This document shows, piece after piece, positions 58,110 to 64,000 of a stretch of DNA of 64,000 nucleotides (position 1 is the stretch's first letter; each line of letters opens with the position of its first letter). The translations under genes and the position numbers were made by a program. Origin of the DNA: Bacteroidota bacterium (GTDB lineage Bacteria > Bacteroidota > Bacteroidia > Chitinophagales > Chitinophagaceae). Where the stretch lies: assembly GCA_029573235.1 (NCBI GenBank), contig JAKQGX010000004.1:1-64000 (forward strand), in the 5' to 3' direction. The notes under the pieces are model-generated. The model was given only the letters and a program-made list of their open reading frames with translations. It was not told the origin of the DNA and did no database searches.

Positions 58110-58292
58110 ATGAAAAACAACCAAAATGCATTCACCCAAAAGTATCCCCTCTCCAAAACCCTAAGATTTGAACTGAAACCGATAGGGAAAACTTTAGAAC
58201 ATATAGAAGCCAAAGGCCTTTTAAGCCAAGACGAGCAAAGAGCGGAAAGTTATAAGAAGATGAAGTTACAGTTTATTCAAAAAGGAAATTAA
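58110..58292 (+). pseudogene. Cas12a (Cpf1) N-terminal remnant, 60 codons
   Basis: [45 protein letters not shown] is the canonical Cas12a N-terminus ([21 protein letters not shown]...); homology stops at about codon 50 and the frame ends in LQFIQKGN*. Confidence 0.88.
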
Positions 58293-58317: not shown

Positions 58318-61300
58318 ATGGAAAAGTTTAAAATCACAAAAACAATTCGCTTTAAAGCAATACCACAAAAAGCAGAAAGACTACAGGCTCAAGCAGAGGC
58401 ATTAATGGATAATCCTAAAGCGGACATTACTGTGCTTGTCATTAAGGGTTTTGATTTAATTAATTTATTTGAGGAATTAGTCTATACCAATGATAAAAAA
58501 GAGTATTTAAGAAAAAATATTACTATCCATTTTAGATGGTTACGACAATATGTAAAAAATGAATGGTACGATTGGAAACAAGGGAAAATTGAAATAGAAA
58601 ATGATAATAACAAAGCAAAGCAAAAGCAACCCCAAAAATCCAATTCACCCTTTGCTAGCTTATTAGCCATAAGAGATAATTTTGATGATGCTAAAGAAAA
58701 AGAACAAACAGACCATACTAACAAAACGGCAAAAAACAGTGAGGATAAAAAATTACCATTAGGCTCTGTGCCTTTTCTAAAAAATGAACTTCAAAATATT
58801 AGTAGTAGTTGGCGGGAGCTATTAGATGAATTAAGAAAAGCTTTTGAACGACCTGAGGAAAACCGTATGCGCAGAGCTGATATTGCTAAATTTTTAGGAG
58901 GGCTTTCCACGAGACAAATGCTCCCTGCATTAATCGAATTCATTAATGATTTAAACGATAAAAAATCAGAAGAACAAATTAATGCTTTAAAAAAATTAGT
59001 ACAAGAGTTTAAAGAACTACTTGAAACTTGTCAAAATGCTTATTTATCTGCACAAAGTTCCGGCATAAATATAGCAAGGGCAAGCTTTAACTATTATACA
59101 TTAAATAAGAAAGAGAAAAATTATACAGAAGAAAGGCAAAAAATATTAAACAGCTTGTCAAGGTCATTTTTTGAAAAAGGAAGAGTACCCCAAATTATTA
59201 AGGATTTAAGCATTGACGAAACCCTTTCAATTGGAAACCTATATGAGTTTCTAAAAAAATATAAAGCAGAGCAAAAACAACAATTTCAAGAAGCAGTAAG
59301 CCAAGGTTTAAAGTTTAATGAACTGAAAGAAAAATTTCCATTATTTGATACAATTGAACCTATCTATAAAGACTTTGTTGCAAAAACCAATGCAATTACT
59401 CAAAAAAGTACTGCTTTACAAAACAGCTCTCAAACCAAAGATCTTAAAGATGAAATCAATAAACTCAAAAGAGAACGGGGGCAGATGTTTCAGAAAGGAA
59501 AATTCAGGAAATATACCGAGTTATGTGATGTTTATAAAAAAGTTGCTCAAAATAAAGGAAAACTAAAAGCAGCTCTGATAGGTATCGAAAAAGAAAAATT
59601 AGATTCCCAAAAATTGCAATACTGGGCTTTGATTGGAAGGCAAAACAATCAATACAAACTCTATCTTATCCCCAAAGAAAAAGTGCAGGAAGCCTATGCT
59701 GAAATATCCAGGCAAGGCAGAATAGAAAACGAGGTAAGTACACCGCTGTATTATTTTGAATCGTTTACTTTTAGGGCTTTAAGAAAATTATGTTTTGGGG
59801 TAAATGGAAATACTTTTATTCCTGAAATCAAAAAGGCATTTCCTGAATTCAACACACCTGACTTTGGTGAGCATACTTTCAGAACGGGAAATATTGAACA
59901 AGATGAGCAAAACTTAATTCAATTCTATCAAAAAGTGTTAGATACTGATTTTGTTCTTAGAAATTTAAGGTTGCCTCATTCTCAATTGCAAGAAGTAATA
60001 GATACTAAATACAACAGTCTTCAAGAATTTAAGATTGCCATAGAAAAAGTATGTTACGCCAAACAAACAGTCTTAAATTCAAGAGTATTAAGGCTATTGG
60101 AAACCGATTTTAAAGCACAAATTGTTGAGCTAAGCAGTTTAGATTTAAATAAAGAAAATCCTACCCATTTAAAAGCACATACCCTTTTGTGGAATAGCTT
60201 TTGGAGTAAAGAAAATGAAGCCAATCATTTTACCACTAGAATAAATCCTGAGATCAGCATCTATTGGCGTGAAGCTAAAGCCTCTCGAATAGAAAAGTAT
60301 GGAAAAGGAACGCCGCTTTATGATGAGAGAAAGAAAAACAGGTATTTGCATCCTCAATTTACAGTCGCATTTACTTTCAATGAAAATGCACTTAGCAATG
60401 AGTTGAATTTTGCTTTTGAGGGTTTTGAGAAAAAGAAAGAAGCTCTAAACAATTTCAACCAGCAAATAAACCAAGAGTTTAAAAAGGGATTAGAAAATCA
60501 AATTTTAGGTGCTTTTGGTATTGATACCGGAGAAGCAGAATTGGCAACCATTGGATTAACAGATAATGGAAAACCTTTTCCTACAAAGCTTATTCGGCTA
60601 AAAACAGAAAAATTAAATTTTGAAAAACAAGGCTTTTTTAAAGACGGCACACCCAGAGAAAAACCCTATCGTGCTATTGACAATATGAGTTATTTCTTAA
60701 ATCAAGAATTGTACGAAAAAACTTTTAGAGATTATCTTTTTCAAGAAACTTATACGGAAATTTTTGAAGAATTTGAAACCACTACTATTGACTTAACTTG
60801 TGCCAAAGTGATTTGCGGACATATTGTTTTGAATGGTGATTTGCATATGCGTACCAAGCTCAATTTATTGAATGCAAAAAGGCAAATACGACAAGCACAA
60901 ATTCTTAACCCATCTTTAGAAATAAAATTTGAAGAAGATAAAATCTTGATGCCTGAAACTGATGAAGATAAAAAAGCCATCACATCTTGGAAAGCCATCT
61001 ATCATACCAATGAAGAGTTGGAGCAAATACAACCTATAAAAACAGTAAATGAAATGCTACTATCTTATTTAAAAGAGATTAAAGTAGATGAATCTATTGA
61101 AATAGAAAGCATCAACCGATACCGCAAAGTAGTGGCGGGAAATATGGTTGGGGTTATAGCTCATTTGTACAATAAATATCCTATCCTTATTGCTATTGAA
61201 AATCTTGCCCAAGGCACTATTGAAAAACATCGTTTGCGTTATCAAGGTGTAATGGACAGACCTTTGGAGACAGCACTGTATCGTAAATTCCAATCGAAAG

Positions 61301-61614
61301 GATTAACGCCTCCTATATCTGATGTTGTTGCAATTAGAGAAGCCCTTACCGAAAAGAAAAATAATAAAAAAAGTCAGTTGGGTGTATTACAATTTGTAGA
61401 TGAGCAACTCACCAGTAAAACCTGCCCCAATTGTGGCAAGAATGCCTATGAAGGTAGTAGAAAAGAATTGTACTTAAAGGAGAAGAAACAAGGAATTTTT
61501 TCTTGTACTTGTGGCTATCACAACATCAATAATCCTATGGGCTTGAACTTACACAGTAATGATGCTGTTGCCGCATTTAACATTGCCAAAAGAGGCATTA
61601 AAAACATTAAATAA
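58318..61614 (+). CDS. Divergent Cas12-family (type V) effector with RuvC nuclease and zinc ribbon, 1098 aa, Cas12a2-like C-terminal architecture
   Basis: N-terminus ITKTIRFKAIP (cf. Cas12a [11 protein letters not shown]); RuvC-I GAFGIDTGEAELATIGLTDNGKP (D736); RuvC-II NMVGVIAHLYNKYPILIAIENL (E961); zinc ribbon TSKTCPNCG...FSCTCGYH (C1036, C1039, C1063, C1065); RuvC-III HSNDAVAAFNIAKRG (D1082). Confidence 0.88.
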   Translation: MEKFKITKTIRFKAIPQKAERLQAQAEALMDNPKADITVLVIKGFDLINLFEELVYTNDKKEYLRKNITIHFRWLRQYVKNEWYDWKQGKIEIENDNNKAKQKQPQKSNSPFASLLAIRDNFDDAKEKEQTDHTNKTAKNSEDKKLPLGSVPFLKNELQNISSSWRELLDELRKAFERPEENRMRRADIAKFLGGLSTRQMLPALIEFINDLNDKKSEEQINALKKLVQEFKELLETCQNAYLSAQSSGINIARASFNYYTLNKKEKNYTEERQKILNSLSRSFFEKGRVPQIIKDLSIDETLSIGNLYEFLKKYKAEQKQQFQEAVSQGLKFNELKEKFPLFDTIEPIYKDFVAKTNAITQKSTALQNSSQTKDLKDEINKLKRERGQMFQKGKFRKYTELCDVYKKVAQNKGKLKAALIGIEKEKLDSQKLQYWALIGRQNNQYKLYLIPKEKVQEAYAEISRQGRIENEVSTPLYYFESFTFRALRKLCFGVNGNTFIPEIKKAFPEFNTPDFGEHTFRTGNIEQDEQNLIQFYQKVLDTDFVLRNLRLPHSQLQEVIDTKYNSLQEFKIAIEKVCYAKQTVLNSRVLRLLETDFKAQIVELSSLDLNKENPTHLKAHTLLWNSFWSKENEANHFTTRINPEISIYWREAKASRIEKYGKGTPLYDERKKNRYLHPQFTVAFTFNENALSNELNFAFEGFEKKKEALNNFNQQINQEFKKGLENQILGAFGIDTGEAELATIGLTDNGKPFPTKLIRLKTEKLNFEKQGFFKDGTPREKPYRAIDNMSYFLNQELYEKTFRDYLFQETYTEIFEEFETTTIDLTCAKVICGHIVLNGDLHMRTKLNLLNAKRQIRQAQILNPSLEIKFEEDKILMPETDEDKKAITSWKAIYHTNEELEQIQPIKTVNEMLLSYLKEIKVDESIEIESINRYRKVVAGNMVGVIAHLYNKYPILIAIENLAQGTIEKHRLRYQGVMDRPLETALYRKFQSKGLTPPISDVVAIREALTEKKNNKKSQLGVLQFVDEQLTSKTCPNCGKNAYEGSRKELYLKEKKQGIFSCTCGYHNINNPMGLNLHSNDAVAAFNIAKRGIKNIK

Positions 61615-63536
61615 TGAAGTACATATTTGCAATTGACGAAACAGGAAATTTTTCTTTTGATGAAAAGGCTAACTCTTATGTATGTGGAGTTTTAATTTCT
61701 AAATCAGAAAATGAACTAAAGCAAAAGTATAAGGAAGCTTATCAATCTTTTTTTCCTAATAGGTTAGTTCCTGATACAAAAGAGCAGCTAATAGGAAAGG
61801 AGCAGGAACATTTTCATTTTGCAAAACTCTTCAATAACCAAAAAGAAATTTGCAAAACCGAATTATTACCATTAGCAAATAAGATTTATATTTCTTCAGG
61901 AAAACCCTTGCTATTTGCCAATAACCAAAACTATTGGCAAATAGCGGTTACGGCAGTGATTACACAACTACTAAAGCAACAAAAATTTGATAGAGACGAT
62001 GCTTTAGAAATTCAAATTGATTTTAGAGCAGATAAAGTTTGGGGCACTATCAATGAAACCAGTCCCGACTTTTTAGCTTATCACAATATATTGAAAAATC
62101 AGTTTGAGCTTATCATTAAACCCTACAAAGACACATTAAACATCCCCATAAGCATTTTATTTGCCAGTGATACTTCGTCTTTTTTTGTAAATCTTGCAGA
62201 CATTGTTTGCGGCATTGTTAAGCAGCACAAGGAGGTAAACAGCATAAAATGTCCTTGCGAAAAAGTAATGGGAAATAGTAATCCTGCCTTATTGATAGCA
62301 AATAATCCTTTAGCAGCTTTGGTAACTATTTTTCAAGAACTACTTAATAATGGAGTTTCCAATAATACCGCTTTAATGTCAACTATCTTGGAGCGATGCC
62401 GAAAGGAACAAAATTTATACAATCAGGTTTGGGAAATTTTTTATAGCTTTTTAAAATTTCAAATTAAGGAACGCTTTGAAAACAATCATTTCTCTAAACT
62501 CAATGAAATAAATTCCTTATTCTTAAAAGAGTTTAATCGCAACTTTCAAAAAATAAATAGCGACAAAACCTTAGATATTGCTACTTTATTTGTGGAGTTT
62601 GCTTCGCATAATGGGGAACATATTTTACCTTTTTCAAATGACTTTTTCCTAAACATCTTAAATGATAACCATAACGAAAGTAGGATTTTGAGAAAATGGG
62701 AAAAATGGATTAGTTATGAACTAAGAAGTGCACAAATCTTATTTAACAGTTATGAATTCGATACTATTGAAAGTCGTTTTGAATCCCTTTGGAATCAACA
62801 AGAAAGCATTATTAAATCTATTCCGTTTGCCGAAATTAAAGATGAACACACTACAGCGATTATAGGTACATTGGCACAATCTTATGCCTATAAAGGAAAA
62901 ATGGACAAGGCAATAGAGTATTTTGAACTCTCATTGGAATATGCTACCAGAAGTAATGCTCAAGCCTATTTTTATTTATTGACTTGTCATTTGCTTAAAC
63001 AAGATATTCCCAAAGTGTATCACTATTTTGAATTACACACCCTTACTAAGGCTCAAGATTTTCAAAACAAAAAAGAAAAGAACATTTGGTCCCTGTTAGC
63101 TTATGCTAAACTTAGAGCATTAGAGTTATATACAAATGGTTCTAGTAATCTTCCTGAAATTATTTCAAATGAAGTAGAACCAAATTCTTACCCATATCCA
63201 CTTTTGCTGAAGTGGCAAGCTTTGGCACTTATATTAGAAAACAAAACAGAAAATAAAGAAAGAATAATAAGTTTATTGACACAGGCATTAGAAACTTTGT
63301 TACAAGATAGAAACGGATTTACTATCCAAACATTATCTATCCCAATTATTCAGCTATTTGCATTAATTGATAATACTAATCCATACCACGCCCAATATAG
63401 TCGTTTGATAAGAGAGTGGTCAGAGCAGAGTTTGCCTTTTAAAGGTTTTATTGAAAATTCAGATTTTCTACAAAGTTTAAAAAATGATAAGGATGCTTGG
63501 TATAGAGCGATATCCTTACCCTTTATATATTCTTAA
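61614..63536 (+). CDS. DUF3800 domain protein with C-terminal TPR-like region, translationally coupled to the Cas12-like gene
   Basis: MKYIFAIDETGNFSF (DESG-type motif), SSFFVNLADIVCGIVKQH (terminal DUF3800 LADxVxG motif); C-terminal helical repeats IIGTLAQSYAYKGKMDKAIEYFELSLEYA; TAATG stop/start overlap with upstream gene. Confidence 0.8.
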   Translation: MKYIFAIDETGNFSFDEKANSYVCGVLISKSENELKQKYKEAYQSFFPNRLVPDTKEQLIGKEQEHFHFAKLFNNQKEICKTELLPLANKIYISSGKPLLFANNQNYWQIAVTAVITQLLKQQKFDRDDALEIQIDFRADKVWGTINETSPDFLAYHNILKNQFELIIKPYKDTLNIPISILFASDTSSFFVNLADIVCGIVKQHKEVNSIKCPCEKVMGNSNPALLIANNPLAALVTIFQELLNNGVSNNTALMSTILERCRKEQNLYNQVWEIFYSFLKFQIKERFENNHFSKLNEINSLFLKEFNRNFQKINSDKTLDIATLFVEFASHNGEHILPFSNDFFLNILNDNHNESRILRKWEKWISYELRSAQILFNSYEFDTIESRFESLWNQQESIIKSIPFAEIKDEHTTAIIGTLAQSYAYKGKMDKAIEYFELSLEYATRSNAQAYFYLLTCHLLKQDIPKVYHYFELHTLTKAQDFQNKKEKNIWSLLAYAKLRALELYTNGSSNLPEIISNEVEPNSYPYPLLLKWQALALILENKTENKERIISLLTQALETLLQDRNGFTIQTLSIPIIQLFALIDNTNPYHAQYSRLIREWSEQSLPFKGFIENSDFLQSLKNDKDAWYRAISLPFIYS

Positions 63537-63545
63537 TGAAAACTT

Positions 63546-63767
63546 ATGGAATCCTATATCACCCTATCCTTTCTAAATGATTTTATTTTTTGCCCAAGGA
63601 GTATTTATTTTCATCAGCTCTATAGCAATTTTACTGAAACTGTGTATAAGCAGCAGCCTCAAATAAAGGGTACTGCTGCCCACCAAAGTATAGACGAGCA
63701 AAACTATAGCACCGCTGCTCATATCCTGTAAGGCTTGGAAGTGTTTAGTAAAGGTTTAATAAGGTGA
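63546..63767 (+). pseudogene. Cas4 N-terminal remnant with in-frame stop
   Basis: MESYITLSFLNDFIFCPRSIYFHQLYSNFTETVYKQQPQIKGTAAHQSIDEQNYSTAAHIL* then GLEVFSKGLIR*; matches the type V Cas4 N-terminus (FCPRSIYFHxLY); reading continues Cas4-like after the TAA at 63729-63731. Confidence 0.82.
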
Positions 63768-63817
63768 AATCATCATAATACTACATTTATAAAAACTAAA
63801 TTTAATACTTTTGCATA

Positions 63818-64000
63818 ATGTTCTATAGGAGAAAAATTATTTTGGCACTTTTACAAATATTTGGAGGACAAATTGATAAAATAAGTCTTCAAAAGTTACT
63901 TTTTTTATTTACAAGAGGGCAAAAAAAAGCAGAATACGATTTTATCCCATATAAATACGGTTGCTATTCGTATTCTGCAAATGCAGATTTAACAGCTATG
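63818..64000 (+). CDS. Partial ORF, possibly SocA/Panacea (DUF4065)-like antitoxin-type protein
   Basis: MFYRRKIILALLQIFGGQIDKISLQKLLFLFTRGQKKAEYDFIPYKYGCYSYSANADLTAM..., open to window end; LQKLLFL...Y.F.PYKYG pattern. Confidence 0.4.
   Translation, partial: MFYRRKIILALLQIFGGQIDKISLQKLLFLFTRGQKKAEYDFIPYKYGCYSYSANADLTAM

What the first reader, a model, noticed from the sequence alone, without database searches (positions are those of the whole stretch)
63546..63767. cas4 decayed by a nonsense codon, then truncated; no cas1/cas2 visible
Seen in sequence: ...YSTAAHIL then TAA (63729-63731), with the same frame continuing GLEVFSKG before diverging and ending at 63767. Intact Cas4 proteins read ...ILQG(L/I)xVYS..., so the TAA looks like a CAA-to-TAA change. 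The first Cys (FCPR) remains, but the nuclease core and C-terminal Cys cluster are gone. The next ORF starts at 63818 and is not cas1. The adaptation module therefore appears lost, and the effector must use a fixed or trans-encoded array.
Basis: partly seen in the sequence, partly recalled or inferred. Interest (0 to 1): 0.65.

Follow-up and report, generated by a model that had tools for sequence, protein, structure and literature searches.

The report
Defence cassette splits CRISPR adaptation genes
In this bacterium a two-gene defence cassette sits across the junction of two genes that add new memories to a Cas12-type CRISPR system, so the system has probably lost the ability to learn, but its memory bank, a shortened cas1, a complete cas2 and one intact cutting enzyme lie next to it, most of them just past the end of the window.

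Summary
In detail: 63546-63767 is the first 61 codons of a type V cas4 ended by TAA at 63729, and the two closest relatives checked have CAA there. The conclusion 'adaptation module lost, array fixed or in trans' comes partly from the window edge. The real event is larger than a nonsense codon. Compared with a same-genus relative, a ~1.8 kb stretch carrying a two-gene candidate defence pair (PADLOC PDC-M19A/B) replaces ~441 bp from cas4 codon ~68 to cas1 codon ~29, so both genes are cut. Upstream, cas12a is reduced to its first 52 and last ~8 codons by an in-frame ~4 kb deletion, while the neighbouring Cas12a3-like effector is intact. Most likely: one RNA-triggered effector using a cis array that no longer gains spacers normally. 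An independent MAG (L050) shows similar decay. Loss of adaptation genes is a known phenomenon; the parallel is the mildly novel part. No reads were available to check the base or junction calls.

The parts
58110..58292 (+). cas12a remnant: first 52 codons fused in frame to the last ~8 codons, then stop; ~4 kb of cas12a missing
   Evidence: N-terminus hits Cas12a models only over about positions 1-53; DNA alignment to intact cas12a of L026/L030; only match to Cas12a family TIGR04330 in the genome
58318..61614 (+). intact 1098-aa Cas12a3-like effector, RuvC residues D736/E961/D1082 and zinc-ribbon cysteines kept, most of the tRNA-loading domain region absent
61614..63536 (+). 640-aa DUF3800-like protein with TPR-like part, start overlaps effector stop by one base; conserved in L042 and L048
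   Evidence: the DUF3800 match is below the Pfam cut-off (18.1 against 21 bits)
63546..63748 (+). cas4 remnant: codons 1-61, TAA at 63729-63731, cas4 homology to about 63748
63749..64000 (+). start of the ~1.8 kb replacement segment (continues to contig position ~65555) that takes the place of ~441 bp spanning the cas4 3' part and the cas1 5' end; junctions approximate
63818..64000 (+). 5' part of PDC-M19A candidate defence gene with DUF488 domain (whole gene is contig 63818-64702). Beyond the window, same numbering: PDC-M19B 64704-65528; 5'-truncated cas1 65613-66428; cas2 66443-66715; CRISPR array of 8 repeats 66833-67314
   Evidence: PDC-M19A PADLOC E 1.6e-129, DUF488 E 2.5e-25; M19B E 1.5e-127, cas1 model positions 45-316 of 317, cas2; array

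Best explanation
A tandem type V locus (cas12a, Cas12a3-like effector, DUF3800 gene, cas4, cas1, cas2, array) has been partly dismantled. Shown by comparison: an in-frame deletion removed nearly all of cas12a; a two-gene candidate defence pair (PDC-M19A/B) replaced the stretch from cas4 codon ~68 to cas1 codon ~29; a C-to-T change put a stop at cas4 codon 62. Inferred: Cas4 is dead, and Cas1 (lacking at least 29, probably ~49, N-terminal residues) with Cas2 integrates spacers poorly or not at all, so the array next door is a fixed memory. Inferred: the intact effector processes crRNAs from this cis array and gives RNA-triggered immunity alone.
For: cas1, cas2 and array on the same contig and strand; gene order matches loci with complete genes L026/L042 and L030/L049; DNA homology stops and resumes at the two junctions; M19A/B is a stable pair found in many other genomes, not next to cas1 in the roughly 1.5 kb flanks read; own genome has one cas1, one cas4 fragment, one array of this repeat, no full cas12a; effector has no internal stop and keeps RuvC residues; fold match to Cas12a3. 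cas4 and cas1 remnants show few amino-acid changes (7 nonsynonymous against 25 synonymous in cas4 vs L042; cas1 dN 0.12-0.14, as between relatives with full-length cas1), so the damage looks recent.
Against: The genome is a MAG 81% complete: intact copies could lie in missing parts, and the stop and junctions are unchecked by reads. Cas1 keeps its C-terminal part and could start at TTG 65613 or an unusual start further up; cas1 shows no excess of amino-acid change, so it may still work. In F. novicida loss of Cas4 removed PAM selection but not acquisition (PMC13034035), so loss of Cas4 alone would not freeze the array. Array expression and effector activity are untested.
Confidence: 0.8

Rival explanations
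1. Adaptation still works in altered form: truncated Cas1 plus Cas2 integrate spacers without Cas4, with loss of PAM choice.
For: cas2 is full length; Cas1 keeps its C-terminal domain and shows no sign of relaxed selection; Cas4 is not needed for acquisition as such in F. novicida.
Against: Cas1 lacks its start codon and 29-49 N-terminal residues; cas12a, which stimulates acquisition in F. novicida, is also gone.
Confidence: 0.12
2. One reading: the adaptation module is gone and the effector relies on a trans or distant array.
For: cas4 is truncated and no cas1/cas2 lie within the window.
Against: cas1, cas2 and a matching array follow within 3.6 kb; no second array of this repeat found in the genome.
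Confidence: 0.03
3. Assembly or binning artefact: base error at 63729 and a chimeric join of the M19 pair into the locus.
For: MAG in 43 contigs, no reads or coverage available.
Against: Both flanks of the insert are cas genes in the ancestral order, and the retained parts fit the expected place and strand; a chimera would need two matching joins. The cas12a deletion is a third separate lesion.
Confidence: 0.05

Closest known systems
Tandem Cas12a plus Cas12a2-type loci with a shared array (PMC9811890)
   Same: Two type V effectors in tandem beside one Cas12a-type array, as in the relatives of this locus
   Different: Here the Cas12a partner is deleted and cas4/cas1 are cut by a defence pair
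Cas12a3 (Ba1Cas12a3, PMC12851939)
   Same: Best sequence and fold match (E 1e-119 to 9e-126; TM 0.73-0.74); RuvC residues and zinc ribbon kept
   Different: Only 35 residues align to the 106-residue tRNA-loading domain; falls in a separate 7-member group, possibly Cas12a4, which I could not compare directly
V-A2 loci with DUF3800 accessory nuclease (PMC12669027)
   Same: A DUF3800-like gene follows the effector
   Different: Pfam match is below cut-off; found in 3 of the 17 loci examined
CRISPR-Cas loci lacking adaptation modules (e.g. type VII, III-G/H; PMC12669027)
   Same: Array presumed not to gain spacers normally
   Different: Here recent remnants of cas4 and cas1 and a full cas2 remain, so it is decay of one locus rather than a trait of the subtype

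Membership tests
Functional type V Cas4 (cas4_PREFRAN) | N-terminal part with first cysteine (FCPR) | tested here: met
   76.6 bits, positions 1-55 of 178
Functional type V Cas4 (cas4_PREFRAN) | Nuclease core and C-terminal cysteine cluster | tested here: not met
   Absent after codon ~68; the relatives' alignment continues for over 100 further residues ending in the cysteine motifs
Complete type V adaptation module | Full-length cas1 | tested here: not met
   Model positions 45-316 of 317, no usual start before codon ~49
Complete type V adaptation module | cas2 and adjacent CRISPR array | tested here: met
   90-aa Cas2, 8 repeats
Complete type V adaptation module | Spacer acquisition activity | not testable with these tools
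   Needs experiment
Cas12a3 | Sequence and fold similarity, RuvC residues, zinc ribbon | tested here: met
Cas12a3 | tRNA-loading domain (Ba1 residues 855-960) | tested here: not met
   35 of 106 residues aligned; no counterpart of the segment that holds R902, Y922 and N924
Cas12a3 | RNA-triggered tRNA tail cleavage | not testable with these tools
   Needs experiment
Cas12a4 | Grouping with ApCas12a4 in a tree | not tested
PDC-M19 candidate defence pair | Both PADLOC models over full length, adjacent genes | tested here: met
   E 1.6e-129 and 1.5e-127

The most novel reading that the evidence does not exclude
Tandem Cas12a/Cas12a3-type loci repeatedly shrink to a stand-alone RNA-triggered effector with a frozen array: loss of cas12a, which boosts spacer acquisition in F. 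novicida, goes with decay of cas4 and cas1, while the RNA-triggered effector is kept by selection. Two MAGs of different genera (the window genome and L050) fit.
Probability: 0.3. Interest if true: 0.55.

Novelty: new member of a known kind. Interest (0 to 1): 0.38.

Why it matters
If true, it shows that the RNA-triggered partner of a tandem type V locus can be kept when the DNA-cutting Cas12a and the learning machinery are lost, and it makes testable whether such a fixed array still protects. It also shows one candidate defence pair landing inside another system's adaptation genes.

Tried and rejected
Array or cas genes in trans: own-genome searches found none besides this locus. Strict link between DUF3800 and absence of the tRNA-loading domain: rejected, because L048 has DUF3800 and a full-length domain region while L043 lacks both. 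Spacer targets: 23-24 nt cores of 6 of the 7 spacers had no exact match in viral contigs, and the whole array gave only chance-level hits in phages; the second spacer was not scanned in viral contigs. Single-protein search of genome contigs found nothing; the alignment search found 16 loci. No relatives of the effector in viral contigs. Mobile-element ends around the M19 pair: none seen by eye, not searched formally. Substitution rates are rough because synonymous sites are near saturation.

Full report
Observation. The frame at 63546 reads 61 residues of Cas4, TAA at 63729-63731, then GLEVFSKGLIR and a stop at 63767. It exceeds the curated cut-off for type V Cas4 (76.6 against 70 bits). Two relatives, L026 (same genus; the same contig returned by name as L042, isolate SZAS-28) and L030 (returned as L049), read CAA where the window reads TAA.

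What lies beyond the window. The window is the first 64000 bases of a 97.2 kb contig, so coordinates carry on unchanged. From the edge onward come PDC-M19A (63818-64702, DUF488 domain), PDC-M19B (64704-65528), cas1 (65613-66428), cas2 (66443-66715) and an array of eight 36-nt repeats with seven spacers of 26-29 nt (66833-67314). The repeat ends in the Cas12a-type stem AATTTCTACTATTGTAGAT.

The real lesion. Against L026, DNA homology covers cas4 to 63748, breaks, and resumes at about 65559 inside cas1. About 441 bp of the relative's sequence is replaced by about 1.8 kb holding the M19 pair. cas1 thus lost its start and about 29 codons; the first usual start is a TTG at about codon 49. cas2 is full length. 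M19A at full length occurs in 26 other genomes of 399 sampled in the family (my count of full-length matches over 50% identity), and M19B adjoins it in all 11 other loci read, none showing cas1 in the short flanks. The order of the nonsense change and the replacement cannot be told.

Upstream. The ORF at 58110-58292 is the first 52 codons of cas12a joined in frame to its last eight or so; about 4 kb is missing compared with L026. No other Cas12a of family TIGR04330 was found in the genome. The 1098-aa effector at 58318-61614 has no internal stop, keeps the presumed RuvC residues D736, E961 and D1082 and zinc-ribbon cysteines, and matches Cas12a3 best by sequence and by predicted fold (mean pLDDT 78, pTM 0.59; TM 0.73-0.74). 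It lacks most of the tRNA-loading domain: 35 residues against 106 in the L055 protein, which I take to be Ba1Cas12a3 or a near copy, because its N-terminus matches and R902, Y922, N924, K881 and K885 fall at the published positions. Seven such short effectors form one side of the tree (SH-aLRT 100). They may be Cas12a4; I had no Cas12a4 sequence to test.

How it probably works. In F. novicida, Cas4 is needed for PAM choice, not for acquisition itself, and Cas12a strongly raises acquisition (PMC13034035). Here Cas4 and Cas12a are gone and Cas1 is cut, so new spacers are probably rare or absent (inferred). The effector with its cis array can probably still act, since its relatives keep crRNA-processing residues and respond to RNA targets (PMC12851939; inferred for this protein). 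Few amino-acid changes in the cas4 and cas1 remnants suggest recent damage, or continued use in the case of cas1.

Related loci. Some contigs are short, so absence of a gene in L044-L046, L052 and L055 is not informative. L050 shows similar decay: cas12a reduced to about residues 2-25 and 1225-1283 with stops, cas4 with TAG at codon 148 where L054 reads CAG, cas1 split by a frameshift, but a 1213-aa Cas12a3 without stops. So a broken cas4 is not unique to the window genome; this corrects my notebook entry. L042 is roughly the reverse: the effector has an in-frame TGA at codon 536, while cas12a, cas4, cas1 and cas2 have open frames. L057 keeps cas4, but no cas1 or cas2 was found in the 9.4 kb after it. 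With two cases, and single-base calls from MAGs, a trend is a hypothesis.

Judgement. The finding is a sound observation with a conclusion distorted by the window edge. Decay of CRISPR adaptation genes is known; the specific disruption is a new example, and the parallel with L050 is the part worth following.

Noticed in passing
58110-58292: Upstream cas12a is reduced to a 60-codon in-frame remnant while the next effector is intact.
   Followed up: yes
58318-61614: Cas12a3-like effector without most of the tRNA-loading domain; one of seven short relatives across several phyla, possibly Cas12a4.
   Followed up: partly
61614-63536: DUF3800-like gene overlapping the effector stop; also after the effector in L042 and L048.
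   Followed up: partly
L050:9724-16240: Similar decay of cas12a, cas4 and cas1 beside an intact Cas12a3 and a 15-repeat array in another genus.
   Followed up: partly
L042:11606-11608: In-frame TGA at codon 536 of the effector, with cas12a and adaptation genes present.
   Followed up: no
L049:13530-14501 and several other loci: RhuM-like gene beside the effector or cas4 in L042, L049, L050, L052, L053 and L054; none in the window locus.
   Followed up: no
L043:15192-22759: Array motif counted 119 times next to a short effector and a full-length cas12a match.
   Followed up: no
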